DNA of 29,854 nt from positions 1-29,854 of IMG/VR virus record IMGVR_UViG_3300009786_001143. One strand, 5' to 3'. Below, piece after piece: positions 13,185 through 29,853 of this stretch (the first letter of the stretch is position 1; each line of letters opens with the position of its first letter). The notes beneath the pieces were generated by a model. That model saw only the letters and a list, made by a program, of their open reading frames with translations. It ran no database searches and had not been told where the DNA came from. The position numbers and the translations under genes are program-made. This DNA is from a virus.

Positions 13185-14028
13185 GTTCGTAACGAATAAA
13201 GAAATTCCTAATTTGTTATTGTCTGGTGGACCTGGCGTTGGTAAGACGACGGTTGCTAGGGCTTTGTGTGAGCAACTGGAAACAGATTACCTCATCATCA
13301 ATGGTAGTGAAGAATCTGGCATAGATGTTCTTAGAAGTAAAATAAAAGGTTTTGCTTCTACTGTATCATTGACTGGTGGAACTAAAGTTGTGATATTAGA
13401 TGAAGCAGATTACCTCAATCCTCAAAGTACGCAACCCGCTCTCCGTGGGTTCATTGAGGAATTTCATAACAACTGTAGATTTATATTTACAGCTAACTAT
13501 AAAAATAGAATTATCGAACCATTACATTCTCGATGTTCAGTTATTGAATTCAAGATAAATGGCAGTCGTGATAAATTAGCTCACGAATTGCTTAATCGTT
13601 GTGGCAATATACTGAATGAGGAAAATATAAAATACGATAACAGGGTTGTAGCAGAACTTATTATGAAACACTTTCCGGATAACCGGCGAGTGTTGAATGA
13701 ACTGCAGCGGTATAGTGCTGCGGGTGAAATAGACTCCGGAATTCTTGTCAATCTTTCAGATATTAATTTGAAAGAATTGACCCTCCACCTCAAGAATAAG
13801 GAGTTTACCAAGGTGCGTAAATGGGTAGTCGATAATATCGACAATGACCCTACGAAAATCTTTCGTAAAATTTACGACAACTTGTATTATACTATGGAAC
13901 CGAGCACTATACCGTCTGCTATTATTTTAATTGGTCAGTATCAATATAAATCAGCATTTGTAGCTGACCAAGAGATTAATTTGTTGGCGTGTTTAACAGA
14001 AATTATGAGCCAATGTAGATTCAAATGA
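13096..14028 (+). CDS. 44: Clamp loader large subunit gp44
   Basis: A protein of 310 residues (T4 gp44 has 319) of the AAA+ clamp-loader family. Visible: the N-terminal WVEKYRPRKIQDCILP, Walker A GGPGVGKTT at about 45-53, Walker B VVILDEADYL, and the arginine-finger SRC motif (HSRCSVIEF), then the lid and collar domains. Four gp44 and one gp62 open the gp45 ring and load it at primer ends. It has a GAGGTG ribosome site inside the zinc-ribbon gene. In T4 the next gene is 62. Here gp62 is 7.2 kb away at 21250, after a block of cargo genes. Confidence 0.93.
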   Translation: MKQILWVEKYRPRKIQDCILPPAIKKSFSEFVTNKEIPNLLLSGGPGVGKTTVARALCEQLETDYLIINGSEESGIDVLRSKIKGFASTVSLTGGTKVVILDEADYLNPQSTQPALRGFIEEFHNNCRFIFTANYKNRIIEPLHSRCSVIEFKINGSRDKLAHELLNRCGNILNEENIKYDNRVVAELIMKHFPDNRRVLNELQRYSAAGEIDSGILVNLSDINLKELTLHLKNKEFTKVRKWVVDNIDNDPTKIFRKIYDNLYYTMEPSTIPSAIILIGQYQYKSAFVADQEINLLACLTEIMSQCRFK

Positions 14029-15266
14029 ATGATGCTTGGAGTGATAGACTAAAGCAAGAATACGGTGAGTGGTTGGAGAAATACAATCACAACGTAGAGG
14101 CTCTTAGTGATGAGGAGATGAAAAATCTCCTAGAGGAAGAATTATTGTTTACTTCCGATATGTCCGTAGAAGAATATACCCTTTGGCAAAAATGGCATGA
14201 GATACAACGTAAATATCCAACTAAGGAAGTATCAACTCTTTTTGGTAAAGAAAAGGTATTGATTGAAGGTACCCACATTATAGACAAAGCTAAATCTATG
14301 ATGTGGAAACCAAAATCTATTAATGATTATTTGAACTTGGAACCAGAGATGGTTCTTACAAATTATAATGATTGGTTAAAGGAACAGTTTACAACAGTAA
14401 GAACCTTTTGTCACACACAACGAAACAATAATAACATAGGTAGAAATATGTTTTACCTTGTTATGGATAAACTTACAGGTAAGTATCTTGGTGTGATTGT
14501 TATTACAGGAGATTTTCTTGACTTAGCACCCAGAGATAATTTTATAGGTTGGACCAGAGAACAGAGAAACGCAGGTAGATTGAAACATACTTGTATAGGC
14601 TCAACAATTTTACCAACCCAACCCCTAGGGTATAATTATGTAGGCGGTAAACTATTAGCATTATTGTGTTTGTCTGATGAAGTGCAGAACGAATGGAAAA
14701 GAAGATATGGTCAGACGTTGGTGGGTGTGACTACAACATCTTTATATGGTTCGTTTTCACAATACAATAATTTAAAATATTGGAATAAAAGAGGAAAGTC
14801 ATCCGGTTCTATTGTATTTGAGCCAACAAGAGACACCTTATATAAAGTTAGAGATTGGGTCCATAAACGTGACCCTGTTAAATATTGGGAATGGTATTTT
14901 GCTTTAGACGATAGAGGTAATAAACTTAAACGTGACCACAAATTTAGAATGTTGAATTGGGTTTATTCTCAGTTGAAGATAAAAGATACAAAGACGATGC
15001 ACCAACGTGGCATTTATTTTTCCCATCTTTATGAAAACTCATCAGAGTTTTTAAGAGAGGAAATATTAGAGACTAAATTAAGAAAACGATTTGACACCTC
15101 TACCGAACATTTGGTTAACCTTTGGAAAGATAAATATGCGAGTAAAAGAATTAAGTCTCTTATAGAAAGTAATAGAGTAAAAAAGGAAACTCTATTTTAT
15201 GATGAATTGATTTACCTTAGCTGGGAAGATACTAAGAAAAAATATTTACCGGATGTGGGTCGGTGA
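14025..15266 (+). CDS. DruA/DUF4338-like protein
   Basis: A protein of 413 residues. Residues about 140-265 follow the DUF4338 pattern: YLVMDKLTGKYLGVIVI, then APRDNFIGWTREQRNAGRL, a hydrophobic ILPTQPLGYNYVGGKLLALL stretch, the EWKRRYGQTL segment and a final LKYWNKRGKSSGS. DUF4338 is found in DruA of the Druantia anti-phage system. The 120-residue N-terminus is charged and helical, and the C-terminal 130 residues are basic and unassigned. A DruA-like core in a phage could be counter-defence, inter-phage competition or DNA/nucleotide modification. It overlaps gp44 by 4 bases and the following glycosyltransferase by 4 bases, and it starts the cargo block. Confidence 0.55.
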   Translation: MNDAWSDRLKQEYGEWLEKYNHNVEALSDEEMKNLLEEELLFTSDMSVEEYTLWQKWHEIQRKYPTKEVSTLFGKEKVLIEGTHIIDKAKSMMWKPKSINDYLNLEPEMVLTNYNDWLKEQFTTVRTFCHTQRNNNNIGRNMFYLVMDKLTGKYLGVIVITGDFLDLAPRDNFIGWTREQRNAGRLKHTCIGSTILPTQPLGYNYVGGKLLALLCLSDEVQNEWKRRYGQTLVGVTTTSLYGSFSQYNNLKYWNKRGKSSGSIVFEPTRDTLYKVRDWVHKRDPVKYWEWYFALDDRGNKLKRDHKFRMLNWVYSQLKIKDTKTMHQRGIYFSHLYENSSEFLREEILETKLRKRFDTSTEHLVNLWKDKYASKRIKSLIESNRVKKETLFYDELIYLSWEDTKKKYLPDVGR

Positions 15267-16653: not shown

Positions 16654-17077
16654 ACAAATTAAATATGGTGACATCTGGCCTCTCAATCTTCCGTGGGAGG
16701 AAGATCCAGTTAGATCGGAACTCAATAGAGAATTTAGACACACTGCCGGCAGAGAAGTATTTACAAATGGTGGTGCTATTGTTTGTGTTGCATATTGTAG
16801 GGGTATTCCCAGCACGATAGCACATTTGGATACTATGACCGGATTAGACCACGCAATATTTTATACTGTGTGGAGTCGTCGCCCCGGTTCTGGTAGATTG
16901 TTAGTTATAGATACTTTAAATTATTTACAACTAACCAGAACGTGGATAAAAAGATTTGTTACACTGTCTCCTAAGACAGAGATGGCTCGTAAGTTTCATC
17001 TAAGTAACGGGGGAGTTTTGGTGAGGGAAAATGTAGACTCACTAAACTTTGAGTATGGTGGTGATAGAGTCAATTGA
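16643..17077 (+). CDS. GNAT-like acyltransferase-type protein
   Basis: A protein of 144 residues. The central strand VCVAYCRGIPSTIAHLD, a GSGRLLVIDTLNYLQL segment, and FVTLSPKTEMARKFHLSNGGVLVRENVDSLNFEY resemble the last strands of a GNAT fold. The 'FHLSNGG' end corresponds to the place where GNAT proteins describe the acceptor ('F..xNGF'). The usual Q/RxxGxG/A acetyl-CoA loop is not clear: the nearest is RRPGSGR. T4-like marine phages carry such proteins. Phage Mu Mom has a GNAT-like fold, but I have no direct sequence support for a Mom activity. It lies between a glycosyltransferase and the pilin. Confidence 0.4.
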   Translation: MRVKQIKYGDIWPLNLPWEEDPVRSELNREFRHTAGREVFTNGGAIVCVAYCRGIPSTIAHLDTMTGLDHAIFYTVWSRRPGSGRLLVIDTLNYLQLTRTWIKRFVTLSPKTEMARKFHLSNGGVLVRENVDSLNFEYGGDRVN

Positions 17078-17086
17078 GAGGTTGAT

Positions 17087-17623
17087 ATGAAACAGAAAGG
17101 ATTTACATTAATAGAGTTGATGATTGTGGTAGCAGTGATTGGAATCTTAGCAACAGTAGCAATTCCTTCTTATAGCAATTATACAGTTAAGGCTAAAATT
17201 TCAGAAGCATTTTCAGTTATAGGTCCTTGGAAGATGGAGATGATGGAATATTTCTTTATGAATGGAGAATTTCCTAAAAAAGGATGTAATTCTTGTATCG
17301 GTATGGGATCAGATGGTGATTGTGGAGCATCCTTACGAGCTGGTAAAAGTTGTTCCTTTGGAAAAAGTGGAATAGGAACCTATGTTCAAAATATTCATAT
17401 TGGAGGTCGAGTTGAATTGAAGGAAGACCAAGATTTGATTATAACTTTCAATGACAATGCTGGTGCTGCTGCTGGTAAGCGGATAGCTTTACGAGCAGTT
17501 AATAGCGGCGGTGTAATTGCATGGGTATGTTCCTCTATGGCCTCTATGGATCCTTCTGCATTAGATTTAAAATACTTACCTTCAAGTTGTAATAAATATA
17601 TATATTGCCCGGCCTGCGGATGA
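17087..17623 (+). CDS. Type IV pilin (PilA/PilE-like prepilin)
   Basis: A protein of 178 residues. The N-terminus MKQKG followed by [20 protein letters not shown] and [16 protein letters not shown] is a canonical class III signal. A short basic leader ends in Gly5, cleavage falls before Phe6 (to be N-methylated), Glu10 is in mature position 5, and a hydrophobic helix packs the fibre core. The globular part has several cysteines, including a Cys-rich NSCIG...DCG...SC loop, and the C-terminus ends in KYIYCPACG. Host PilD and assembly machinery would be needed. A GAGAGG ribosome site is present. It is flanked by glycosyltransferases. The presence of a major-pilin-like gene in a T4-like phage is unusual. 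Confidence 0.9.
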
Positions 17624-18405
17624 AAAATTTAATAGTCATATATAGAATTTTATACGGAACTGATTTTCTGGAACGATCCATTAGCAGTGTAAGAGAAGTA
17701 GCAGACCAGGTATGTGTTTATTTTTCTGATGAACCTTGGTCTAGGCCTCAGAATTTTATAAGAATAAATGATATAGAGGTAACTCCAAAACAGGTTATCC
17801 AAGATATGGATGACGATAAGGTACATGTAACATTTCAACATTATGATACTCCGAAAAATCAATTTAAATTGTTGGCAGAATTATCTATTAGACACCACGA
17901 TATACATTATATGACTGTCTTTATGGAACCTGATATGGTGTGGGCGCCTGGTATGTTTAGAAAATTTATTGATGAGTTTGAATCACATCGCTCTCCTTAT
18001 TTGTATGCCCCACAGATAGAATTATGGAAAAGTATGGATTGGAGAATACCGATGAGAAATAGATTTGGACCTGCCGCATATAAAGGAGAAATTCCTAACT
18101 TGGGATTCGGACAGTTTTCAGAACAAAGTGTAGAACCTGTTTTGTCTCAGACGGGTTGTTATAACTTTGGGTTCTGTCTTAATGAGAAGACAATGGAATA
18201 TAAACATAAGGCAGCTTTAGATTTTTCTGCAAAGATAGGAGATTCGGTGCCAGCAGAAAATTGGTACTTTGATAAATGGTTACATTGGACACCACAGACA
18301 ACAAATTTAGAACCTTCTAGGAATCATACTCATTTAATTCCTAGAGCAGAGGCATATGAAATGCCTAAAGAAATGCGAGACTACATGAATGCTAATACCA
18401 CCTAA
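17620..18405 (+). CDS. Glycosyltransferase-like protein
   Basis: About 261 residues from ATG 17620, which overlaps the pilin stop (ATGA). A TTG at 17605 is in frame but lies in the pilin. The N-terminus [20 protein letters not shown] and the segment [18 protein letters not shown] (with EPDM standing where GT-A enzymes carry DxD) suggest a GT-A-like nucleotide-sugar fold. The end has [15 protein letters not shown]. It could be a glycosyltransferase that acts on the pilin or virion. The position directly after the pilin and the coupling overlap hint at the pilin but do not prove it. No family name can be given with confidence. Confidence 0.45.
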
Positions 18406-19429
18406 GTCGGCTGAAGAACACAAGTTTACCTCTACAGGTATCAAGTTTTGGAGACATCCAGAACAGATGAATAATTATAAGAATGGTAATCCCAATACAG
18501 TTATTTCTACCCACATATCACCAGAAGGTGCGTGTAATTTAACTTGTGCTTATTGTTCTGTTACCTATAGAGATACCCATTCTCGTATTGAGATGGATGT
18601 TATAAAAGATTATGTAACCAAACTCAAGACAAGAGGACTCAAGGCTGCCATTTTAACTGGTGGGGGAGAACCAACATCATATAAACATATTAATGAATTG
18701 ATACGATGGCTTAAATCCCAAGACTTAAAGGTTGCATTGATAACTAATGGTACATTAACACGACGAATTAATCCAGACATATGGCCAATGTTGTCATGGG
18801 TCAGGGTATCTATTAATGTATTTCCTCATTGGGAAGTAAAGATTAACTTACCCACGGAACACTTTACAGGTGATACAGTCATTGGTTCTTCATTTTGTTA
18901 TGATGAAGATTATGATTTAGAAACAATGAGAATGGTTTCTAAGATTGCAACCAGAATGAAAGCTAAATATATTAGACTGTTACCAAATTGTTTATTGCCT
19001 CAAGAAGAATTATTGAAACGCCATGACTTGGTAGAAAAATTAATAAAAGATTTGGATGACCCCAGGTTCTTTCATCAGTTTAAAATACATGGTGCACCAG
19101 ATAGTGTTACTTGTCACCAATCTTATTTCAGACCCTATCTTTCAGAGGAGGTACACCATGAAACTGGGCAACCAGGTTCAGTATTTCCCTGTGATAGTGT
19201 AGTATTGAATGACCAGAATACAAAGTTTATGCAAAAGTATTCCTTGTGTGCTCCTGGTGATATACTTGATTATTTGGATAAGAAGATAGACCAGCAATTT
19301 TCTATTGCGGAACAGTGTACCGGGTGTGTTTTTACAGATAATGTGAATATGTTGAAAGGTTTTATTAATGGTGAGATAGATAAATTTAATGAGTTTAGCA
19401 GTCCGTTGATGCATGAGGAATTTGTATGA
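18389..19429 (+). CDS. Radical SAM enzyme
   Basis: A protein of 346 residues with CNLTCAYC at 49-56, the CxxxCxxC motif that binds a 4Fe-4S cluster for SAM cleavage. AAILTGGGEPTSY provides the SAM-contacting GGEP, and ALITNGTL is the later strand. In the last 110 residues further cysteines (SVFPCDSV, YSLCAPGD, EQCTGCVF) suggest a SPASM-like auxiliary cluster domain. Such enzymes modify peptides, sugars or other substrates. It overlaps the upstream gene by 17 bases and the methyltransferase by 4. It may act on a sugar, or mature a protein or peptide, but the substrate is not visible. Confidence 0.85.
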   Translation: MLIPPKSAEEHKFTSTGIKFWRHPEQMNNYKNGNPNTVISTHISPEGACNLTCAYCSVTYRDTHSRIEMDVIKDYVTKLKTRGLKAAILTGGGEPTSYKHINELIRWLKSQDLKVALITNGTLTRRINPDIWPMLSWVRVSINVFPHWEVKINLPTEHFTGDTVIGSSFCYDEDYDLETMRMVSKIATRMKAKYIRLLPNCLLPQEELLKRHDLVEKLIKDLDDPRFFHQFKIHGAPDSVTCHQSYFRPYLSEEVHHETGQPGSVFPCDSVVLNDQNTKFMQKYSLCAPGDILDYLDKKIDQQFSIAEQCTGCVFTDNVNMLKGFINGEIDKFNEFSSPLMHEEFV

Positions 19430-20043
19430 TAGAGTTTGACCGTGAATATTATGAACAAGGTCCTATGACAGGTAAAAGTTTATATACTAATTATCGATGG
19501 TTGCCAGAATTAACTCTTCCATTGGCTCATCATATAGTTTTAGATTGTAACTTAGATAAACACCAGACGATTTGTGATTTTGGATGTGCAAAGGGATATT
19601 TGGTATATGCTTTACAATTATTAGGTTATGATTCTTACGGTGTTGATATTAGCGAATATGCTATATCAAAAGCACCTAAAGAAGTTAATGGTCATGTAAC
19701 TTGTATTGAACCTTTGGCAGAGTTTGGTTTTTATGATTGGATTATCTGCAAAGATATTTTAGAACATATACCTTATGAAGATATTGATAGTCAATTGATG
19801 ATGTTGCGGAACAGTTGTAAGAAGATGATGGTAATGGTTCCTTTGGGTGATGGTGAAAAATATTTTATTAAGGCTTATGAGAAAGATGTTACCCATGTTA
19901 TTAGAGAAAATTTAGATTGGTGGATTAATCTATTTGAATCTGTTGGATTTAAGATAGCTAAAGCTAGTTATGAGATGGGTCCCTACAAAGAAAACTGGCA
20001 AATTCATCCTACTGGTAATGGTTTTTTTATGTTACAAATTTAA
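19426..20043 (+). CDS. Class I SAM-dependent methyltransferase
   Basis: A protein of 205 residues. TICDFGCAKGYLVYALQLLG is motif I of Rossmann methyltransferases and SYGVDISEYAI gives the acidic residue for the SAM ribose. YDWIICKDILEHIPYEDID is the motif IV region of small-molecule/sugar-type methyltransferases, and MVMVPLGDGE a later strand. The substrate is not clear; the setting between a radical SAM enzyme and a UDP-sugar dehydrogenase suggests a sugar or glycan. It is coupled to the upstream gene by ATGA. It is separated from the dehydrogenase by only 31 bases with a GGAGAG ribosome site. Confidence 0.8.
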   Translation: MIEFDREYYEQGPMTGKSLYTNYRWLPELTLPLAHHIVLDCNLDKHQTICDFGCAKGYLVYALQLLGYDSYGVDISEYAISKAPKEVNGHVTCIEPLAEFGFYDWIICKDILEHIPYEDIDSQLMMLRNSCKKMMVMVPLGDGEKYFIKAYEKDVTHVIRENLDWWINLFESVGFKIAKASYEMGPYKENWQIHPTGNGFFMLQI

Positions 20044-20074
20044 AATTGAGGAAATTTATTGTGGAGAGTTTAAA

Positions 20075-21250
20075 ATGAGAGTAGGTTTTGTGGGCATAGG
20101 CAATTTAGGTAAAGATGCTGCTGAAGTTATGGCACAACATTATGATGTTGTTGGTTTTGATATCAGACAAGAGATAGATACTACTCTTAATATGACTAAA
20201 ACTTTGGCAGAGGCTGTAGAAAATAAAGATATAGTTTTTGTGGCGGTGCCCACACCCCACCATAAAGATTATGATGGAAGATATCCTACTAGTCATCTAG
20301 AACCTAGAGATTTTGATTATACAGCAGTTAAGACAGTTGTTAGTTCTATTGATAAGTTGATAAATGATAAGACTCTTATAGTATTAATATCTACTGTCTT
20401 GCCTGGTACAGTAAGAAGGGAGATTGCTCCCCTAGTTAAGAATGGTCGTTTCATTTATAATCCCTATTTGATAGCTCAAGGTTCAGTTAAGTATGATATG
20501 ATTTATCCGGAGATGATTATTATAGGAACAGAAGATGGTGGTGAAAGTAAAGATGCTAAGATGTTGAAATGGTTTTATAATAAATTTGTATTTAAAAGGA
20601 CACGAATTGTAACTGGTACTTGGGAAGAGTCTGAGGGTATTAAGATATTCTATAATACATTTATTTCTACCAAGTTGGCATTAGTTAATATGATTGCTGA
20701 TGTATCAGAAAGTATAGGAAATATGAATGTAGATGTTATTACTACTGCTCTCAAAGAATCTACAGATAGAATTATGGGACCCAAATATATGTCGGCTGGT
20801 TTAGGTGATGGTGGTGGTTGTCATCCTAGAGATAACATTGCTCTTAGATATTTGGCAAAAGAGTTAGATTTGGGTTATGATTTGTTTGAAGCTATTATGA
20901 CTACTAGAGAAAAACAAGCTAAGAAAATGGCTGAAAAAATTATTAGTTTTAATAATGATGTATGTATTTTGGGTAAAGGATTTAAACCAGGAGTAGACCA
21001 AGAGGTAGGTTCTCCATCAATTTTATTGGGTAGTTTTATAGAACATAAAGCCTTTCATGTATATTGGGATGGTCATCCTGATGAGGTAACTTATCCATTA
21101 ACCTATGTTATGCATCATCATGAACAATATTCTACTTATGATTTCAATCCCGGAAGTATTATCTTTGATCCATTTGGCAAAACTTACCATACGGAAGAGT
21201 TGACAAACAAGGGCATTTCGGTGTATAATTATGGAAGAGGTCCCACTTAG
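20075..21250 (+). CDS. UDP-glucose/GDP-mannose dehydrogenase-like protein
   Basis: A protein of 391 residues from ATG 20075, which has GGAGAG upstream. An ATG at 19970 would overlap the previous gene by 74 bases. It has an NAD-binding GFVGIGNLG, STVLPGTV, NPYLIAQG (in place of the usual NPEFLREG), and the catalytic GGGCHPRDN with Cys249 (usual GGSCFPKD). A late GKGFKPGVDQEVGSPS segment matches GxAFKPxTDDxRxSP. The family oxidises UDP-glucose (or GDP-mannose) to uronic acid in two steps, making donors for glycans. The catalytic Cys is kept but the nearby residues differ, so the substrate may too. It is the last gene of the 7.2-kb cargo block. Confidence 0.82.
   Translation: MRVGFVGIGNLGKDAAEVMAQHYDVVGFDIRQEIDTTLNMTKTLAEAVENKDIVFVAVPTPHHKDYDGRYPTSHLEPRDFDYTAVKTVVSSIDKLINDKTLIVLISTVLPGTVRREIAPLVKNGRFIYNPYLIAQGSVKYDMIYPEMIIIGTEDGGESKDAKMLKWFYNKFVFKRTRIVTGTWEESEGIKIFYNTFISTKLALVNMIADVSESIGNMNVDVITTALKESTDRIMGPKYMSAGLGDGGGCHPRDNIALRYLAKELDLGYDLFEAIMTTREKQAKKMAEKIISFNNDVCILGKGFKPGVDQEVGSPSILLGSFIEHKAFHVYWDGHPDEVTYPLTYVMHHHEQYSTYDFNPGSIIFDPFGKTYHTEELTNKGISVYNYGRGPT
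21200..21229 (+). promoter_or_regulatory. Possible internal sigma70 promoter before gp62-regA
   Basis: TTGACA (21200-21205) and TATAAT (21224-21229) are perfect consensus boxes but are 18 bases apart. They lie inside the end of the dehydrogenase gene. RNA would start near 21236, about 14 bases ahead of the gp62 GTG start and including its AGAGG ribosome site. The spacing differs from the other promoters, and the boxes are in coding sequence. Confidence 0.45.
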
Positions 21251-22449: not shown

Positions 22450-24966
22450 ATGTCTGAAAACTTTTACACAAATATAATTCTTAAAGGTGATACCCTTTAT
22501 CTGCGTGCCATTAGTAATGGCAAACGGATTATGGAGAAGATAAAGTATAAACCTACTTTATTTGTTCCCACTAAGAAAAAAACAAAATATAAAACCTTGT
22601 CTGGTACGACAGTAGAACCGGTCAAGTTTAATAGCATTTATCAGGCTAGAGATTTCCTAAAGAACTATCAAGAACAGCCCGACTTGGTGTATGGCCAAGA
22701 GAGATTTCAGTATTGTTATATATCGGATAACTACCCAGGCATTATAGAATGGAATCAAGATAAGATTCTAACTCTATCTCTTGATATTGAGGTGGCAAGT
22801 GAGAATGGTTTCCCTGACCCCAACCTGGCAGAGGAAGAAGTCCTTGCCATTACTGTCAAGAACTATACCACTAAGAAGATTATGGTGTGGGGTATCTACG
22901 ACTACAACAACACCCGTGATGATGTTGAATATGTGCATTGTGATGGTGAAGGGGAGTTGCTTAGGGAGTTTGTTTCTTTTATGGAAGCAGTTCAACCAGA
23001 TGTTATCACGGGTTGGAATACCACCTTCTTTGATATTCCCTATCTCTGCCTTAGAATAAAAAAACTCTTTGGCAATAAGTTTATGCAAACTTTATCACCG
23101 TGGAAAGTGGTGACTGAAGAACATACTTCCACATTTGGAAGAGATGTAACACGATATAATATATGGGGTGTTTCTAATCTTGATTATCTGGACTTGTATA
23201 AAAAGTTTACATATACTGACCAAGAGTCATTCACATTAGACAACATAGCTTTCGTTGAGTTGGGTACTAAAAAGGATCCCAATCCCTATGATACATTCAA
23301 AGAATGGTATACTAAAGATTATCAATCGTTTATTGATTACAACATCAAGGATGTGGAACTGGTCGATGCATTAGAGAATCATCTGGGTATGATCCAGTTA
23401 ATGTTTACGATGGCATATGAAGCTAAGATTAATTATAACGATGTTTATTCACAGAATCGTATGTGGGATGTTATCATCTTTAATTATCTTAAAGAGAAGA
23501 ATAAAGTCATACCACAACGAATGAGGAATGATAAGACTGCGAAGTATGAAGGTGCTTATGTAAAAGATCCCCAAGTCGGTCAACACAATTGGGTGATGTC
23601 TTTTGATTTAAATAGTCTGTATCCTCATTTGATTATGCAGTATAATATTTCGGTAGAGACTTTGATAAAGGAAAGTTTCCCTCATAAAATTTCAGTTGAT
23701 AAACTTTTAGATAAAGAAGTAGATACCAGTATGTTGCCCGAATTGGGATTGACTGTTACTCCCAACGGTGCTTGTTTCCGCACAGACATTAAAGGGTTTC
23801 TACCAGAGTTGATGGAGAAGTTCTACAATGACCGTGTGAAGTTTAAAAAGTATATGCTCGAAGCTAAACAACGATATGAGGATACGAAAGACGAAAAGTA
23901 TTTAGCACAGATATCAACTTATCATAATATTCAAATGGCTCGTAAGATTGCTCTAAATAGTTCTTACGGCTCTATGGGTAATGAATATTTCCGTTATTAT
24001 GATGAGAGATTAGCTACTGCTATAACAACTGCCGGTCAACTCAGTATTAGATGGATTGAAGGAAAAGTAAATGATTATATTAACAACATACTACAAACAA
24101 AAGGTGAAGACTATATTATTGCATCCGATACAGACTCTATATACGTTACCTTTGATAAAATTGTACGTCAAACTTTTGAAAACAGAAGTGACACATCTAG
24201 GGACACAATCACCAACTTCTTGGACACTATCGCTAAAGAAAAAATCCAACCGTTTATTGATGAATGTTATAGAGACCTTGCCTCGTATATAAATGCTTAT
24301 GAAAATAAGATGGAGATGGACAGAGAAGTTATTGCTGACAAAGGAATTTGGACTGCCAAGAAACGATACATCTTAAATGTTATTGATAGTGAGGGTGTAA
24401 GATACGCCGAACCACAAATCAAGGTGATGGGTATCGAAGCTGTTAAGTCATCAACACCACACGCTTGTCGTGAGCGTATCCGTGATTCATTAAAAGTTAT
24501 TGTAAATGAAGATGAGTTTAATGTGAATAAGTTTATACAAACTTTTCGTAAAGAATTTATGGCACTGCCTGTAGAGTTGATGGCCTTCCCCCGCTCAGTA
24601 AATGGTATTCGCAAGTGGGGTGATAAGTCCACAATATTCAAGAAAGGTACACCTATGCATATCAAGGGTGCCATCATCTACAATCATTTATTAAAGAAAC
24701 ATAAATTGACACATAAGTATCCGTTGATTATGGATGGTGAAAAGTTAAAATATGTATTACTTAAAACACCCAATGCATTGCAATCAAATGTCATTGCGTT
24801 TCTTGGTGAGTTGCCCAAAGAATTTGATTTACATAAACAGATAGATTTTGATAGACAGTTTGAGAAATCTTTTGTTGATCCCATTTCATTGATATTAGAA
24901 TGTATCGACTGGCGAGTAGATAGAAGTTATGGTACACAAGTTACATTGGAGGCGTTGTTTGGATAA
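22450..24966 (+). CDS. 43: Family B replicative DNA polymerase gp43
   Basis: A protein of 838 residues (T4 gp43 has 898). It has the 3'-5' exonuclease: Exo I with D112-I-E114 (LDIEVASENGFPDP), then the Exo II region VITGWNTTFFDIPYL and Exo III DYNIKDVELV. The polymerase motifs are A DLNSLYPHLIMQYNIS from D386, B RKIALNSSYG at about 498-507, and C DTDS at 560-563. It copies the phage genome with gp45, gp44/62 and gp32. The end LEALFG fits a clamp-binding tail, as in T4 gp43. No ribosome site lies before the ATG at 22450, which is six bases past a -10 box. Confidence 0.96.
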   Translation: MSENFYTNIILKGDTLYLRAISNGKRIMEKIKYKPTLFVPTKKKTKYKTLSGTTVEPVKFNSIYQARDFLKNYQEQPDLVYGQERFQYCYISDNYPGIIEWNQDKILTLSLDIEVASENGFPDPNLAEEEVLAITVKNYTTKKIMVWGIYDYNNTRDDVEYVHCDGEGELLREFVSFMEAVQPDVITGWNTTFFDIPYLCLRIKKLFGNKFMQTLSPWKVVTEEHTSTFGRDVTRYNIWGVSNLDYLDLYKKFTYTDQESFTLDNIAFVELGTKKDPNPYDTFKEWYTKDYQSFIDYNIKDVELVDALENHLGMIQLMFTMAYEAKINYNDVYSQNRMWDVIIFNYLKEKNKVIPQRMRNDKTAKYEGAYVKDPQVGQHNWVMSFDLNSLYPHLIMQYNISVETLIKESFPHKISVDKLLDKEVDTSMLPELGLTVTPNGACFRTDIKGFLPELMEKFYNDRVKFKKYMLEAKQRYEDTKDEKYLAQISTYHNIQMARKIALNSSYGSMGNEYFRYYDERLATAITTAGQLSIRWIEGKVNDYINNILQTKGEDYIIASDTDSIYVTFDKIVRQTFENRSDTSRDTITNFLDTIAKEKIQPFIDECYRDLASYINAYENKMEMDREVIADKGIWTAKKRYILNVIDSEGVRYAEPQIKVMGIEAVKSSTPHACRERIRDSLKVIVNEDEFNVNKFIQTFRKEFMALPVELMAFPRSVNGIRKWGDKSTIFKKGTPMHIKGAIIYNHLLKKHKLTHKYPLIMDGEKLKYVLLKTPNALQSNVIAFLGELPKEFDLHKQIDFDRQFEKSFVDPISLILECIDWRVDRSYGTQVTLEALFG

Positions 24967-24987: not shown

Positions 24988-25914
24988 ATGAGCAAAATAA
25001 TTGATGAAGAACGAAGAGCAGAAAGTATAAGAGTATTGGGTTTTGATCCATTTGAACAGGAATACCAATCTCTACCTATAACGGATATAACACCAGCAAT
25101 GGCGGCATATATTCTAAAATGGCACAATAATGATAATCGTAAGATTAAAGCTTCACAAGTAAATGCCATAGCTAATAGTATGAGAAATGATGGTTGGTTA
25201 AAAGATGGTGGACATCTTACCTTTAATAAGGAAGGTAACATTACGGAGTTTCAACATCGTCTTGAAGCTATTATAAAAGAAGGTGTTACTGTTGTGGCAC
25301 CTGTTGTTCTTGGTGTTGAACCAGAGTGTTTTACTAAAACCGCTTCACCGAAACCTCGCCGTCCAGAAGATGAAATCCAGAGGAAATATCCCGATGCAAA
25401 GGACAGTGAAATTACTGTTGTTAGGGAAATCCAAAAGCGCCGCCAAGCAACTAAACTTGATATGCAAAATGCAATTGAATTATGGGAACAGTGGCACAAG
25501 GTTGTTCAAGCAGGCGATAAACTAATTGATGGATTTTTTGACAGGGTTGATGCATTTAGTCACTATCGAAGGAATTTTGCTGCATGGGCATCGTTGATGC
25601 ATTGGCATGGTCAGGATAATATTGTAACATGGTTTTTAGACATGTTAGAGAATCAAGTCTTGGATGATGAAGGCACACGTTTAACTAAAGACTTTATGAA
25701 GATGAGTCAACATACATTTGGTATGACAAATACAGGCCGTGCAGATTTTGTATATTTTATGTTATGTGTGTGTTCAGACCGAATGAAGAAATCTCCTGAT
25801 GGTAGGATACAACTCAGCAAAGGAGTTAATGTGCTTAATCACGAAGACCTTAAACATAATGGAACTTATAGAGATTTCTTATTAAATGTTGATAATATTC
25901 AGGAAACCCCGTGA
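24988..25914 (+). CDS. ParB-like domain protein
   Basis: A protein of 308 residues. The first 130 have the ParB-like pattern frequent in phage: LPITDITPAMAAYILKW, HNNDNRKIKASQVNAIANSM, a GWLKDGGHLTFN strand and EFQHRLEAI (residues 88-96), which stands for the G-x-x-R-x-x-A box in the form FQHRLEA. The C-terminal half is helical and unassigned. ParB-fold proteins can act as nucleases, NTP-binding switches or DNA binders, and they recur near phage DNA-modification genes. It has the region's best ribosome site (AAAGGAG) and overlaps the methyltransferase start by four bases (GTGA), so the two are made together. The function in this locus is not known. Confidence 0.65.
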   Translation: MSKIIDEERRAESIRVLGFDPFEQEYQSLPITDITPAMAAYILKWHNNDNRKIKASQVNAIANSMRNDGWLKDGGHLTFNKEGNITEFQHRLEAIIKEGVTVVAPVVLGVEPECFTKTASPKPRRPEDEIQRKYPDAKDSEITVVREIQKRRQATKLDMQNAIELWEQWHKVVQAGDKLIDGFFDRVDAFSHYRRNFAAWASLMHWHGQDNIVTWFLDMLENQVLDDEGTRLTKDFMKMSQHTFGMTNTGRADFVYFMLCVCSDRMKKSPDGRIQLSKGVNVLNHEDLKHNGTYRDFLLNVDNIQETP

Positions 25915-27107
25915 CATATAAACCCTACACTATGCAAGACGTACATGATGCATCTGCACAAGAGAAGTTCAAAGTCATCTCCACCTTTGCGGGTGGGGGT
26001 GGTTCTTCTACTGGTTATAGATTAGCTGGCGGGAAGGTTCTTGTCATCAATGAGTTTGTTGAAGAAGCACAAAAGACTTATGCAGAAAATTATCCTGAGA
26101 CAGTTATTCTTCCAGGTGATATTAAAGAATTGACAGGTAAGAATTTCTTAGATGCAGCTGGTGTTGATGAAGGTGAGATTGATATATTAGATGGATCACC
26201 ACCCTGTTCAGCATTTTCTGTTGCAGGGAAATTATCTCACAATGTGCGTGAAGAAGAACGTGTTGACCTGTTTGGTAATGTGACTGTAGAGAAGGTTGCT
26301 GGTAAACATTCTGATGGTTGGGGTCAGACCAAAAACTATTCTGATGGTAAAATGGTTGAGAACATTGAAGACCTATTCTTTGAATTTCTGCGTGTTGCAA
26401 AAGACATCAAACCAAAAGTCATTGTTGCAGAAAATGTCAAGGGGTTGACGATAGGAGAAGCCAAAGAATATTTTAATAAGATACTCAATGAATTTGGTAA
26501 TATAGGATATCAAGTATGTGCTCAAGTTTTGGACAGTAGATACTTTGGTGTATCTCAAACAAGAAGTAGGGTTATCTTTATTGGTGTGCGTCACGATGTA
26601 ATGGCTAAGTTGGGATTAAATTTTATGACTATATCTCAAATATTTCCTCAACCAGATGCAGATGTTATTCCTGTTAAGGATGTAATGATTGATTTAGTTT
26701 ATGATACAGAAGAAGTGAAGTACCTTACAGAGAAATTTACCAACACAGCATACTGGAAATATACTGGTAGTAAAATGCCTATTGATCCCGATAAGGTTCT
26801 TACAGGAGCAGATTACCATCCTAAAGGGCATCACTTCAATCTTAAAAGGGTATCACAATATCAACCCTCTCCTACGATTACGGCTATGGGCTCAGCAGAT
26901 ACAACAGCTGGTGCATTTCATTGGATTGAGCCAAGGAAGTTGACTTTGGGAGAATTAAAGCGTATAATGAGTTTACCGGATGATTTTAAATTGACAGGTA
27001 AATGGAATCAAAAAGCAGAACGATGCGGCAGAATGGTTCCACCGAGAATGATGGAGCGTATTGCCTCGGCAATTTATACTAATGTATTGGAGAAATATAA
27101 TGGCTGA
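25911..27107 (+). CDS. DNA (cytosine-5) methyltransferase with Arg in motif X
   Basis: A protein of 398 residues. The motifs run in order: I FAGGGGSSTGYRLAGG from about 26, IV DGSPPCSAFS with catalytic C99, VI AENVKGL at 173-179, VIII QTRSRVIFIG at 216-225, IX PSPTITA region at 319-325, then LPDDFKL and motif X CGRMVPPRM at 372-380. In normal C5 enzymes motif X has GNxVPP, where Asn contacts the cofactor end of the pocket. Here it is G373-R374. It flips a cytosine and attaches a methyl, or, if the cofactor is carboxy-SAM, a larger group. Its stop overlaps the CmoA-like start by eight bases, so the two proteins are co-produced. It begins at GTG 25911. Confidence 0.9.
   Translation: MTYKPYTMQDVHDASAQEKFKVISTFAGGGGSSTGYRLAGGKVLVINEFVEEAQKTYAENYPETVILPGDIKELTGKNFLDAAGVDEGEIDILDGSPPCSAFSVAGKLSHNVREEERVDLFGNVTVEKVAGKHSDGWGQTKNYSDGKMVENIEDLFFEFLRVAKDIKPKVIVAENVKGLTIGEAKEYFNKILNEFGNIGYQVCAQVLDSRYFGVSQTRSRVIFIGVRHDVMAKLGLNFMTISQIFPQPDADVIPVKDVMIDLVYDTEEVKYLTEKFTNTAYWKYTGSKMPIDPDKVLTGADYHPKGHHFNLKRVSQYQPSPTITAMGSADTTAGAFHWIEPRKLTLGELKRIMSLPDDFKLTGKWNQKAERCGRMVPPRMMERIASAIYTNVLEKYNG
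26940..26968 (+). promoter_or_regulatory. Possible internal promoter within the methyltransferase gene
   Basis: TTGACT (26940-26945), a 17-base spacer and TATAAT (26963-26968), inside coding sequence, with RNA starting near 26975, about 125 bases ahead of the CmoA-like gene. It has no TGN extension, unlike the other promoters. It could add extra transcription of the CmoA-like gene but may be accidental. Confidence 0.35.
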
Positions 27108-27795
27108 CTTTACCTTTGCTCATAGGCAAGAAGGTTTTGATGAACACATTGATTGGAGTATCAGGGGTTATAGTAATTTATTGGATGATGTTGTAAGTCT
27201 CTCACGATATTTTGTTGAGGGAGATACTAATGTATTAGACATTGGTTGTTCTACGGGTAAACTTACCGCACGTATTTTGGAACATAACTATGGGGCTTGT
27301 CCTGATGCTAAGTATGTAGGGGTAGAAGTGGCCGAAGGTTTCTTTGGTAATCTTGAAGACAGAAAGTTGGAGTTGGATGAGAAATATTCTGACACCTCTG
27401 TTGATTTTATTTACGATGATATCCGTAATTATGAATTTGAGAATTGTTCTCTAATAACGTCCCTTTTTACCTTACAGTTTATGCCTTATTCTTGTAGGGA
27501 AGAGGTCATTCATAATATATATTATGGTCTTAACTGGGGTGGTGCATTTATTTTTGGTGAAAAGATTGATACATCACACAGTCGTATAGAGAATATGTTA
27601 CGCACCACTTATTACGAATTTAAAAATAAGTCTTTTGATTATGAGGATATTATGCAGAAAGAATTGACCTTAAAGAATATGCTTAAACCCAATTCATGGG
27701 ATGAGATTGAAAATATGTTAAATAATGCTGGTTTTAAAGCAGTGCAAAGCTTCTGGCAGAACCATTTGTTTATAGGCGCAATAGCAATTAAATAA
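27100..27795 (+). CDS. CmoA-like (carboxy-SAM synthase family) methyltransferase-fold enzyme
   Basis: A protein of 231 residues (bacterial CmoA about 247) from ATG 27100. It aligns with E. coli CmoA throughout: GFDEHIDWSIRGYSNL (CmoA has FDE and RSVPGYSN), VLDIGCSTGKLTARI for SAM, DIRNYEFENCSLITSLFTLQF, IYYGLNWGGAFIFGEKI, YYEFKNKSFDYEDIMQKE and AGFKAVQSFWQNHLFIGAIAIK. CmoA turns SAM plus prephenate into carboxy-SAM, which CmoB uses on tRNA wobble uridine. CmoB is not in this window, and the neighbour is a C5 methyltransferase. One position is odd: CmoA has Arg in QKR (R199, which I recall as a carboxylate contact) and this protein has Glu188. So the product may be carboxy-SAM or another SAM analogue. 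The gene overlaps the methyltransferase by 8 bases. Confidence 0.8.
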   Translation: MADFTFAHRQEGFDEHIDWSIRGYSNLLDDVVSLSRYFVEGDTNVLDIGCSTGKLTARILEHNYGACPDAKYVGVEVAEGFFGNLEDRKLELDEKYSDTSVDFIYDDIRNYEFENCSLITSLFTLQFMPYSCREEVIHNIYYGLNWGGAFIFGEKIDTSHSRIENMLRTTYYEFKNKSFDYEDIMQKELTLKNMLKPNSWDEIENMLNNAGFKAVQSFWQNHLFIGAIAIK

Positions 27796-27801
27796 AAACG
27801 A

Positions 27802-27830
27802 TTGACATTATTAGATAAATGTGATAGGAT
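27802..27830 (+). promoter_or_regulatory. Sigma70-type promoter of the glucosyltransferase-like gene
   Basis: TTGACA (27802-27807), a 17-base spacer ending TGTGA and TAGGAT (27825-27830). The ATG at 27838 is seven bases further. TGATAGGATGG is identical to the same element before def (9386-9396). The AGGA also resembles a ribosome site for read-through RNA. Confidence 0.62.
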
Positions 27831-27837
27831 GGTATAG

Positions 27838-28845
27838 ATGAGGATCGTTTGTGCTCGCTTGAGAAGTAATGTGACCTATACTGGTCCACTAGAAACTGTC
27901 TTGGATAGTTTCTTTGAACTGTATGTGAGATGGATGAAAGACAATTCACAACATAACTATGATACATATAATTTAAGTTTTGATAAAAGACAACGGCCAC
28001 AACGCAACGCTGAGGTGTTCAAAGATGCTGATGTAGTAGTGATCCCTTCCGATAGTGAGTTTAGATACCACGGCGAAGTACAGCTAGATCCACGAGACTT
28101 GGAGACATCTAATAACTATATTGAAGAAATTAAACCACATATGGAAGGCAAACATATTATTATGTGGCGTTCAGATAGAGGTGATACAGAAGAATTATAT
28201 AGAGAGAAAACATTTAATGGTGTTACTCTCGGTGATTTCAACACAATAGATGAGATAGATTTTCCTGCTAACATACACGGCATGAAGTATCATTTTATAC
28301 AGACATTGAAAAACCCATTGGCTCAAATGTTGCCAATTAGAAAGGATAAAGATTTTGCTTATTGGGGTAGAATGAAAGATGGTGATGACCGAGGTAAAAT
28401 TATTAAAGGGGTGTACAGAGATAAAGATATTACTCAAGTATTGATTGGGGGATTTCCTTCAGGCGTTAAGCGAGATGCTAAGTGGATAAAAGAATGGAAA
28501 GTATTGTACCCTATGATAGAACGAGCCAAGTGTACTCTATGTTTTAATTGGCGAGACCCGACAGCAACAACATCAAGGTATCCGGAAGCATTATCTGTAG
28601 GTTTAATACCCTTTGTATGGCAAGACTATGATAAGAACAATACCTATAACATAGAATCTTGGCAACGTGTAGATAGTTTTGAGAAATTGAAAACTAGAAT
28701 ATTAATGTTGCGTTATCGTGAAGCTTGGGAAAGCAAACTTGATCTGTGTAGACAAAATTATAAAGAGATACTTCCTACACAACAGGAGTATTATGAGATG
28801 TTCACAAAGAGGATGAATAAATATGTTAGCGAGGGAGAAAAGTAG
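27838..28845 (+). CDS. GT-B glycosyltransferase resembling T4 beta-glucosyltransferase
   Basis: A protein of 335 residues (T4 beta-GT 351). The order of features follows T4 beta-GT: an N-terminal Rossmann-like half (MRIVCARL...; VVVIPSDSEF), a linker, FAYWGRMKDGDDRGKII (T4 has a GGSFRSGQRESK loop at the corresponding place), then CTLCFNWRD...TTSRYPEALSVGLIPFVW, where R247 and E250 line up with the R-x-x-E (R269, E272) that grips UDP in T4. A helix ending LKTRILMLR follows, as in T4. In T4 beta-GT adds glucose to 5-hydroxymethylcytosine in DNA. The donor and acceptor here are unknown. It sits just before uvsX, the same place as beta-gt in T4, with its own promoter. Confidence 0.6.
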   Translation: MRIVCARLRSNVTYTGPLETVLDSFFELYVRWMKDNSQHNYDTYNLSFDKRQRPQRNAEVFKDADVVVIPSDSEFRYHGEVQLDPRDLETSNNYIEEIKPHMEGKHIIMWRSDRGDTEELYREKTFNGVTLGDFNTIDEIDFPANIHGMKYHFIQTLKNPLAQMLPIRKDKDFAYWGRMKDGDDRGKIIKGVYRDKDITQVLIGGFPSGVKRDAKWIKEWKVLYPMIERAKCTLCFNWRDPTATTSRYPEALSVGLIPFVWQDYDKNNTYNIESWQRVDSFEKLKTRILMLRYREAWESKLDLCRQNYKEILPTQQEYYEMFTKRMNKYVSEGEK

Positions 28846-29853
28846 ATGTCAAATTTCTTAAAGAATGTAATTAGGGAAACAGGTAATGAATATGCTGCGA
28901 TTGTTAGTGATGGTCTTAGTGCTGCTGATGTTAGCGGCTATGTGGATACCGGTAGTTTTATTTTCAATGCTCTATGTAGTGGCTCTATCCATGGCGGTCT
29001 ACCTGCGAATAAAATTACAGCCATCGCCGGAGAGTCCGCAACAGGCAAAACTTTTTTCTTGCTCGGGGTTTGTCAGTCGTTCTTGGAGAAGAATGTAGAT
29101 GGTAATGTAGTATTCTTTGAGTCAGAGTCCGCTATCACAAAAGATATGATAGAGTCACGGGGTATCGATTCATCACGAATGCTTATACTGCCAATTACTA
29201 CCGTACAGGAGTTCCGTTATCAAGCTCTACAAGTGCTTGAAGCGTATGAAGCAGACGAATCTAGAACGCCTCTAATATTGTGTCTTGATAGTCTGGGTAT
29301 GTTATCAACTACCAAAGAGATAGAAGACACAGAAGCAGGTAAAGAAACAAGAGACATGACCAGGTCACAAATAGTCAAGGCAACCTTTAGGGTATTGACC
29401 TTGAAACTGGGCAAGTTAGGTGTACCGTTACTTATTACAAACCACACTTATGATGTTATTGGGTCAATGTTCCCACAGAAAGAAATGGGTGGTGGTAGCG
29501 GACTCAAGTATGCAGCATCAACTATCATCTACCTTTCTAAGAAGAAAGATAAAGATGGAACAGATATCGTTGGCAACATAGTACATTGTAAAACATACAA
29601 ATCAAGACTAACAAAAGAGAACCAGATGGTTGATGTTCGGTTGTCTTACACTAAGGGTCTAGATAGATACTATGGGTTATTGGAACTTGGAGAAAAACAT
29701 GGTATTTTCTCCAAAGTTTCCACAAGATATGAAATGCCGGATGGTGGTAAAGTGTTTGGCAAACAGATACTAGCTGAACCAGAGAAGTATTTCACAGAAG
29801 AAGTTATGGCCAAGTTAGATCAAGCTGCTAAGATAGAGTTTTCTTATGGATAA
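28846..29853 (+). CDS. uvsX: UvsX RecA-like recombinase
   Basis: A protein of 335 residues (T4 UvsX has 391). It has the RecA core: Walker A GESATGKT at 62-69, the FESESAI catalytic region, Walker [12 protein letters not shown], a switch [13 protein letters not shown], then [11 protein letters not shown]. It pairs strands in recombination-dependent replication with UvsY (1118-1543). Ribosome site GAGGGAG precedes the ATG at 28846, which directly abuts the TAG of the glucosyltransferase-like gene. The gene is complete: TAA at 29851-29853 is one base from the window end. Confidence 0.93.

What the first reader, a model, noticed from the sequence alone, without database searches (positions are those of the whole stretch)
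24988..28845. Putative cytosine-modification operon at the T4 42/beta-gt position: ParB-like, C5 methyltransferase, CmoA-like, glucosyltransferase-like
Between gene 43 and uvsX, T4 carries gene 42 (dCMP hydroxymethylase) and beta-gt, which modify cytosine. Here the core genes are in T4 order, and the same gap holds a C5 methyltransferase, a CmoA homologue and a GT-B protein with a T4 beta-GT-like R-x-x-E. The first three genes overlap (4 and 8 bases), so they are expressed together. I infer a replacement route in which cytosine is altered after synthesis, using a SAM analogue made by the CmoA-like enzyme, then possibly glycosylated. I am not aware of a described natural phage system of this kind.
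Basis: partly seen in the sequence, partly recalled or inferred. Interest (0 to 1): 0.95.

Follow-up and report, generated by a model that had tools for sequence, protein, structure and literature searches.

The report
Phage carboxymethylcytosine locus beside T4-like glucosyltransferase
A marine T4-like phage carries the recently described enzyme pair that puts a carboxymethyl group on DNA cytosine, sitting in the place where T4 keeps its own cytosine-modifying genes and next to a T4-like DNA glucosyltransferase, which looks like a swap of DNA-modification cassettes rather than a wholly new system.

Summary
Between gene 43 and uvsX lie an unknown ORF, a C5-methyltransferase, a CmoA homologue and a GT-B protein, with the stated overlaps. 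The main inference (Cx-SAM from CmoA, used by the methyltransferase to carboxymethylate cytosine) is very probably right, but published: CmoA/CmoX/CmoY of Synechococcus phage S-B43 (PMC12783734, December 2025). The window's enzyme keeps the Cx-SAM contacts named there, including the key Arg (R374). In 13 phage genomes that I compared, 7 with this Arg all have CmoA and 6 without it have none. CmoB and CmoY were not found in the fragment.

What differs: the fourth protein is no CmoY-type ligase; its predicted fold matches T4 beta-glucosyltransferase best among solved structures. In relatives it travels with a DruA-family protein (GNAT fold; phage Mu Mom is the top but tied match), not with CmoX. 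A close relative has DruA where the window has ORF1-CmoX-CmoA, and the window keeps DruA's last codons as a scar. So CmoX-CmoA seems to have replaced DruA beside a resident glucosyltransferase, whose acceptor is unknown. 'ParB-like' for ORF1 is not established. New variant of a known kind.

The parts
24988..25914 (+).
   Evidence: PHROG 5931 of unknown function E 8.4e-20; no PF02195 at E<=1; absent between gene 43 and CmoX in close relative L163
25911..27107 (+). CmoX: DNA cytosine-C5 carboxymethyltransferase (predicted)
   Evidence: PDB 8yf3 (SpCmoX) E 5.6e-138; 224 of 372 aligned residues identical, Cx-SAM contacts F26 E48 F49 D70, nucleophile C99 and R374 conserved
27100..27795 (+). CmoA: Cx-SAM synthase (predicted), phage type with Glu at E. 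coli Arg199
   Evidence: TIGR00740 E 1.5e-36; 54.6% identical over 98% to the S-B43 CmoA region; Glu at 199 also in SpCmoA
27796..27837 (+). Scar of a displaced DruA gene (27801-27818 = IDIIR-stop) with promoter-like TTGACA-17-TAGGAT at 27802-27830
   Evidence: 35 of the 39 bases before the GT start identical to L008 and to L019, where they hold the DruA 3' end; promoter-like match 10 of 12 with TG, scan as a whole not clearly above chance
27838..28845 (+). GT-B protein, structural relative of T4 beta-glucosyltransferase (predicted DNA glucosyltransferase)
   Evidence: AlphaFold2 pLDDT 88.1; Foldseek best 1bgu E 1.1e-6; VIA best T4 BGT Z 18.4; R247, E250, D113, K180, R185 in 33 of 33 rows
22450..24966 (+). 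gene 43, family B DNA polymerase (flank)
   Evidence: PF00136 E 7.1e-29
28846..29853 (+). uvsX recombinase (flank)
   Evidence: PF00154 E 4.5e-15
14025..15266 (+). DruA-family protein, GNAT fold (possible maker of the GT acceptor)
   Evidence: PF14236 E 3.7e-20 over cut-off; PADLOC DruA E 7.4e-19; AlphaFold2 pLDDT 85.2; VIA top row phage Mu Mom Z 10.6, tied with other GNATs

Best explanation
This is a CmoA-CmoX locus in the T4 42/beta-gt position of a marine T4-like phage. CmoA turns SAM plus host prephenate into Cx-SAM. CmoX attacks cytosine C6 with C99 and transfers the carboxymethyl group held by R374, giving 5-carboxymethylcytosine in the finished DNA, probably as shielding against restriction. 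The pair, with ORF1, has displaced a DruA gene next to a resident T4-BGT-type glucosyltransferase. That enzyme stays under selection and probably glucosylates some DNA base, but whether 5cxmC or a product of the remaining DruA is not known. Shown here: gene order, Cx-SAM contacts, Arg/CmoA co-occurrence, GT fold (predicted), signs of the cassette swap. Inferred: all chemistry in this phage.
For: The SpCmoX structure (8yf3) is the best PDB match; the contact residues named in the paper and R374 are conserved. The Arg column is R in 120 of 126 CmoX-family loci, not covered in 4, Leu in 2, several loci being pieces of the same contigs. In 13 phage records titled complete genome, the 7 with Arg all have CmoA and the 6 with Leu or Met have none (Fisher 0.0006). 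CmoB 0 of 14 and 0 in the window. GT fold: T4 BGT first in Foldseek and VIA. Swap: L008 (gene 43 98%, uvsX start 99%) has DruA-GT; scar. GT dN/dS 0.16 between the window and L006, both CmoX-linked. Chemistry proven for S-B43 (PMC12783734).
Against: No chemistry has been measured for this phage. CmoA scores under the TIGR00740 cut-off and has Glu for Arg199, which holds the carboxylate in E. coli CmoA (PMC3663124, passages); but active SpCmoA has the same change. No CmoY, the partner in S-B43, in the window or the matching contig, so the end product may differ. The record is a fragment, so absences are weak. Most loci are incomplete contigs, and the statistics ignore relatedness.
Confidence: 0.82

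Rival explanations
1. The four genes form one pathway: 5cxmC made by CmoA-CmoX is the acceptor of the GT, giving a glucose ester (or another glycosyl form) of carboxymethylcytosine in place of the CmoY amide.
For: GT sits directly after CmoA and has a predicted T4-BGT fold; no CmoY in the 46.6 kb examined; GT kept under purifying selection while linked to CmoX; the combination is also in L006, with CmoA 90% and GT 96% identical.
Against: 76 of 81 GT loci show no CmoX, and 13 of 13 GT records examined whole have no C5-methyltransferase; the GT goes with DruA-family proteins (13 of 13; window lineage too); 13 of 13 CmoX records of other lineages have no GT (a search without a positive in the same call); a promoter-like site of its own.
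Confidence: 0.2
2. The GT acts on a base made by DruA (a GNAT-fold, possibly Mom-like, DNA acyl- or aminoacyl-modifying enzyme); the phage then carries two independent DNA modifications.
For: DruA in 13 of 13 GT records and in the window's twin G001, in 0 of 13 CmoX records in which no GT was found (Fisher 5e-8 without regard to relatedness); DruA directly upstream of the GT in 36 of 81 loci; DruA in the T4 gene 42 position; GNAT fold with Mu Mom as top, tied row.
Against: Only a fold and a neighbourhood; Foldseek gives no GNAT match under E 0.001; 23 of 32 census loci with DruA in the gap show no GT there; in 5 of 13 GT records the DruA match is under the family cut-off; the short GT contigs L085 and L005 show no DruA, though they do not reach its position; the phage DruA could serve defence or counter-defence.
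Confidence: 0.4
3. The C5-methyltransferase is an ordinary 5mC enzyme and CmoA serves tRNA.
For: PF00145 member; best PADLOC match is a type II methyltransferase model; bacterial CmoA acts in tRNA modification.
Against: Arg at the motif X position; SpCmoX with the same Arg accepts only Cx-SAM (PMC12783734); no CmoB in 14 CmoA records or in the window; no tRNA gene in the window.
Confidence: 0.04
4. The GT glycosylates something other than DNA (host surface or a virion protein).
For: Generic GT-B rows follow in Z (15.2 and below); 15% identity or less in the VIA list; the best-ranked viral models have no functional name.
Against: Both T4 DNA glucosyltransferases head the VIA list and BGT heads the Foldseek list, and the gene lies at the beta-gt position among replication genes.
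Confidence: 0.25

Closest known systems
CmoA-CmoX-CmoY system of Synechococcus phage S-B43 (PMC12783734; PDB 8YF3)
   Same: CmoX 60% identical with the named Cx-SAM contacts; CmoA of the phage type; CmoA close to CmoX; no CmoB found
   Different: No CmoY ligase found in 46.6 kb (in S-B43 it lies between CmoA and CmoX); an ORF of unknown function and a T4-BGT-fold GT flank the pair; locus lies between gene 43 and uvsX
T4 gene 42 / beta-gt cytosine modification
   Same: Same position between gene 43 and uvsX; a BGT-fold enzyme with R-x-x-E next to uvsX (in T4, segA lies between)
   Different: No thymidylate synthase-family enzyme (PF00303 in 0 of 15 records, the window's twin G001 among them); cytosine altered after replication; acceptor of the GT unknown
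Phage Mu Mom and Druantia DruA (GNAT fold)
   Same: Window DruA: PF14236 over cut-off; GNAT fold with Mom as top, tied VIA row
   Different: No evidence of Mom chemistry; among ten window proteins scanned with PADLOC, only DruA, and CmoX through the C5-methyltransferase fold (DruM models), match Druantia models in the rows shown
5mC/TET/TAGT hypermodification (recalled) and TAGT family PF20691
   Same: TAGT genes occur in 28 of 81 GT loci
   Different: No TAGT in the window or G001; no C5-methyltransferase in 13 GT records

Membership tests
CmoX (DNA cytosine C5-carboxymethyltransferase) | SPPC motif with nucleophilic Cys | tested here: met
   SPPC at residue 96, C99 aligned with C98
CmoX (DNA cytosine C5-carboxymethyltransferase) | Arg at SpCmoX R350 (HhaI N304 position) | tested here: met
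   R374
CmoX (DNA cytosine C5-carboxymethyltransferase) | CmoA in the same genome | tested here: met
   ORF3 adjacent
CmoX (DNA cytosine C5-carboxymethyltransferase) | Uses Cx-SAM and not SAM; modifies GC | not testable with these tools
   needs an enzyme assay
CmoA (Cx-SAM synthase) | NCBIfam TIGR00740 equivalog cut-off | tested here: not met
   126.3 of 193.3 bits; S-B43, whose CmoA is proven, also falls under it (115.6 bits)
CmoA (Cx-SAM synthase) | Arg199 salt bridge | tested here: not met
   Glu in the window, in SpCmoA and in the 88 loci aligned, so it does not decide activity in phage CmoA
CmoA (Cx-SAM synthase) | Other cofactor contacts Y39, D62, G64, S66, D117, E164 | tested here: met
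   identical in the window; D89 is Glu and N132 is Leu, as in SpCmoA
CmoA-CmoB tRNA pathway | CmoB | tested here: not met
   TIGR00452 in 0 of 14 CmoA records, 2 of them complete phages, and not in the window; window record is a fragment
CmoA-CmoX-CmoY hypermodification | CmoY amide ligase | tested here: inconclusive
   profile of 58 CmoY finds none in the window and contig G001, controls L087 and L152 found; genome incomplete
T4 beta-glucosyltransferase | BGT fold | tested here: met
   predicted model
T4 beta-glucosyltransferase | R269-x-x-E272 pair (role recalled) | tested here: met
   R247/E250 aligned with them and in 33 of 33 rows
T4 beta-glucosyltransferase | Asp100 catalytic base (role recalled) | tested here: inconclusive
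   D113 is in 33 of 33 rows and follows a strand as D100 does, but the sequence alignment does not pair them
T4 beta-glucosyltransferase | Detectable sequence homology | tested here: not met
   hhalign probability 0.24%; phmmer of the PDB lists no BGT
T4 beta-glucosyltransferase | Transfers glucose to hydroxymethylcytosine in DNA | not testable with these tools
   needs an assay
ParB N-terminal domain (PF02195) | Profile match | tested here: inconclusive
   none at E<=1 for ORF1; PHROG 498 (DNA methyltransferase) weak, E 0.0057; hhalign negative
DruA (PF14236) | Curated profile match | tested here: met
   72.7 bits against 27
Druantia defence system | DruA with the other Druantia genes | tested here: inconclusive
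   DruA, and DruM models on CmoX (E 1.6e-49, behind a type II methyltransferase model at 1.5e-66), among ten window proteins scanned; for three of these proteins only the best 25 rows were shown

The most novel reading that the evidence does not exclude
The gap between gene 43 and uvsX in marine T4-like phages is a slot for exchangeable acceptor-making cassettes (T4: gene 42; relatives: a Mom-like DruA enzyme; here: CmoA-CmoX), each feeding the same BGT-type glycosyltransferase. In this phage the result would be a glycosyl ester of 5-carboxymethylcytosine, and in its relatives a glycosylated DruA-made base: two undescribed DNA modifications and a first function for DruA.
Probability: 0.17. Interest if true: 0.85.

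Novelty: new variant of a known kind. Interest (0 to 1): 0.5.

Why it matters
The core chemistry is known since December 2025, so the finding chiefly shows that its genes also sit at the classic cytosine-modification locus of marine T4-like phages. New and testable are: a CmoX locus with a DNA-glucosyltransferase-type neighbour and no ligase found; a swap of CmoX-CmoA for DruA with a scar; and a strong link of a BGT-fold enzyme with DruA, a protein whose function in Druantia defence is, as far as I recall, unexplained.

Tried and rejected
Considered and rejected: ordinary 5mC plus tRNA-modifying CmoA (Arg at motif X, no CmoB found). A hydroxymethylase elsewhere that would feed the GT: PF00303 in 0 of 15 records. 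The GT as a fixed member of the CmoX unit: 5 of 96 loci, 0 of 13 longer CmoX records. Loss of Arg199 as a sign of a dead CmoA: rejected, SpCmoA shares it.

Led nowhere: sequence-only searches for the GT and hhalign against T4 BGT; deeper search for ORF1 relatives (one search returned pieces of the same five contigs) and PDB profile search for ORF1; DruA by Foldseek alone (no match under 0.001). Promoter and terminator scan: 39 and 5 sites against means of 31.0 and 3.6 in shuffles, so not clearly above chance. Paper searches: glycosyltransferase with carboxymethylcytosine and phage, at least two of three terms, from 2025, listed five of 647 papers, none of the five holding the word carboxymethylcytosine; DruA with Druantia and GNAT, 0 papers; DruA with phage, DNA modification and glycosyltransferase, one review, listing only. 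The word glycosyltransferase does not occur in PMC12783734. The library holds no preprints.

Rows dropped before counts: six loci that repeat the window or its twin contigs (L001, L002, L003, L164, L165, L183); repeat loci and those without a full-length match; the HTVC008M row in the GT model; L085 and L005 (GT, too short to reach DruA) in the Fisher table.
Full report
WHAT IS THERE. The window is a whole virus record of 29,854 bases; T4-like phages are far longer (HTVC008M 147 kb), so I treat it as a fragment. Gene 43 (22450-24966), ORF1 (24988-25914), ORF2 (25911-27107), ORF3 (27100-27795 from its ATG), ORF4 (27838-28845) and uvsX (28846-29853) follow each other on the + strand. The flanks are those of T4, where 42 and b-gt lie between 43 and uvsX. 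The stated overlaps of 4 and 8 bases are right. ORF2 is a C5-methyltransferase (PF00145, E 3.5e-56). ORF3 is CmoA-like (TIGR00740, E 1.5e-36; PHROG 4752). ORF4 matches no family above noise. ORF1 matches PHROG 5931 of unknown function; its only Pfam row is at noise level (E 0.11). 'ParB-like' rests on no profile match.

THE CARBOXYMETHYL ROUTE IS PROBABLY RIGHT, AND PUBLISHED. PMC12783734 (outline, and the text from abstract through Discussion; word search) reports that Synechococcus phage S-B43 CmoA makes Cx-SAM, that the C5-methyltransferase homologue CmoX makes 5-carboxymethylcytosine at GC, and that CmoY adds glycine. An Arg (R350) at the HhaI N304 position holds the carboxymethyl group; the wild type accepts only Cx-SAM. 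The authors list 5,615 CmoX candidates, 4,257 CmoA, 2,251 ligases and 1,660 ParBc neighbours. The window's ORF2 hits this structure (8yf3) at E 5.6e-138, far ahead of HaeIII at 3.4e-22. It is identical at 224 of 372 aligned residues and keeps F25, E47, F48, D69, C98 and R350 as F26, E48, F49, D70, C99 and R374. In residues 235-335 of SpCmoX, where target recognition would lie (inference), identity is 50 of 101, so GC specificity is plausible but not shown.

A TEST OF THE ARG. I took eleven further phage records that carry a relative of ORF2 (chosen by me from the 60 rows shown of 82), plus S-B43 and S-CRM01. Seven have Arg (Mcat8, TurkishDelight, PaBG, Yoloswag, SNUABM_28, S-CRM01, S-B43); six have Leu or Met. 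A search of the whole records for TIGR00740 finds CmoA in exactly those seven, all under the family's curated cut-off (Fisher 0.0006). S-B43 was the authors' own case, and some of the others are related, so the figure overstates independence. Among the loci in hand the column is Arg in 120 of 126, not covered in 4, Leu in 2 (L225, L229). Some Arg loci show no CmoA. I searched 11 contigs whole, among them the two Leu contigs and one DruA contig: 2 have CmoA, and these are the two longest (55 and 25 kb); the other six Arg contigs, about 13 kb or less, show none.

CmoA. The phage CmoA proteins differ from E. coli CmoA at Arg199, which forms the salt bridge to the carboxylate (PMC3663124, passages). 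It is Glu in all 90 rows aligned: 88 loci, the window and SpCmoA, the last also being locus L082. SpCmoA is active, with a kcat ten times that of the E. coli enzyme (PMC12783734), so the change does not mean inactivity; easier product release is my guess. CmoB (TIGR00452) is in 0 of 14 CmoA records, of which S-B43 and S-CRM01 are complete, and not in the window. A CmoY profile of 58 sequences finds nothing in the window or in contig G001, whose genes in this region match the window's at 100% and which extends it to 46.6 kb; both controls were found. CmoY-type genes are in 62 of 96 CmoX loci.

THE FOURTH GENE. An AlphaFold2 model from an alignment of 33 has pLDDT 88.1. Foldseek's first PDB match is T4 BGT (1bgu, E 1.1e-6; next 8.8e-5). 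VIA-align 2 puts T4 BGT at Z 18.4 with 294 residues and 4.0 A, T4 alpha-GT at 15.9, other GT-B proteins at 15.2 and below. R247 and E250 align with BGT R269 and E272; these, D113, K180 and R185 are in 33 of 33 rows. Sequence comparison alone shows no homology. I read it as a DNA glucosyltransferase with moderate confidence.

THE GT DOES NOT BELONG TO CmoX. After dropping six repeats, 96 CmoX loci contain the GT in 5 (L004, L005, L006, L085, L103, all of the window's lineage) and DruA in none; 81 GT loci contain CmoX in those 5, CmoY in 0, DruA in 69, TAGT in 28. These loci are the best 80 of each scan plus a few, and cover up to 21 kb each (25 kb for HTVC008M). Thirteen GT records, HTVC008M complete among them, hold no C5-methyltransferase (0 of 13) but DruA in 13 of 13, 8 over the family cut-off. 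Of 19 further records DruA is in 3: G001, the window's twin, and L008 and L019, all with GT. Of the 16 without, 13 are CmoX records in which a whole-record search finds no GT (0 of 13; that call had no positive control of its own, but the GT was found in G001); L085 and L005 carry the GT but do not reach the DruA position; L093 is 10.9 kb. Thymidylate synthase family: 0 of 15.

A CASSETTE SWAP. In a census of the 80 loci with the closest gene 43, 32 have DruA after gene 43 (9 of them with the GT), 19 have CmoX (2 with the GT, both of the window's species; five of the 19 at 40-49% identity), none has both, 29 have neither, 17 of these with under 1.5 kb to look at. L008 (gene 43 98% identical; its 98 residues of uvsX 99%) has DruA-GT where the window has ORF1-CmoX-CmoA-GT. 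L163 (gene 43 97%) has CmoX directly after gene 43, without ORF1. Between CmoA and the GT the window keeps IDIIR-stop, the end of DruA; 35 of 39 bases equal L008 and L019. The stretch contains a promoter-like site (scan not clearly above chance), which could be why it stayed. The GT evolves under constraint between the window and L006, both CmoX-linked (dN 0.018, dS 0.11, ratio 0.16; CmoA 0.10).

WHAT DruA MAY BE. The window also has a DruA at 14025-15266, 27% identical to the L008 one. Its model (pLDDT 85.2) is a GNAT fold: VIA's first row is phage Mu Mom (Z 10.6, 186 residues), tied with acetyltransferases at Z 10.1 (about 145 residues). Foldseek's best is an acetyltransferase domain at E 0.012, so the match is weak. 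PMC10853773 (one passage) already calls DUF4338 a GNAT domain. Mom modifies adenine in DNA (recalled). DruA as the maker of the GT's acceptor is inference.

VERDICT. The locus is a new variant: CmoA-CmoX at the T4 42/beta-gt place, no ligase found, beside a T4-BGT-fold enzyme that in relatives is DruA's neighbour. What that enzyme acts on is the open question.

Noticed in passing
L279 and L282 (Erwinia phages Yoloswag and SNUABM_28, CmoX gene): A long insert that looks like an intein sits inside the catalytic SPPC motif of CmoX, between SPP and a second Cys.
   Followed up: no
L225, L229 and L273 (Melnitz-3); L275-L277, L280, L281: CmoX relatives with Leu (first three) or Met (the rest) where CmoX has Arg and HhaI Asn; no CmoA in the six complete records among them, nor in contigs L225 and L229. 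Their cofactor is unclear.
   Followed up: partly
GT loci such as L007 and L071: TAGT (PF20691) in 28 of 81 GT loci; a gene cluster whose tested member is cytidylyltransferase-like lies directly upstream of the GT in 19, perhaps for the sugar donor.
   Followed up: no
window 17087-17623: A protein with a pilin domain and N-methylation motif (PF00114 E 2.2e-11, PF07963 E 1.3e-9) among phage replication genes.
   Followed up: no
window 15940-21250: A run of possibly sugar-related genes: GT2-like (PHROG 14945), radical SAM, methyltransferase, UDP-glucose/GDP-mannose dehydrogenase-like.
   Followed up: no
CmoX loci L086, L089, L100, L109, L126 and others: Loci without CmoY often have other genes of unknown function before CmoX (clusters c30, c41, c64, c113), possible other tailoring enzymes.
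   Followed up: partly
phage CmoA aligned: Glu in place of E. coli Arg199, Glu for Asp89 and Leu/Ile/Val for Asn132; the term Arg199 has 0 occurrences in PMC12783734.
   Followed up: partly
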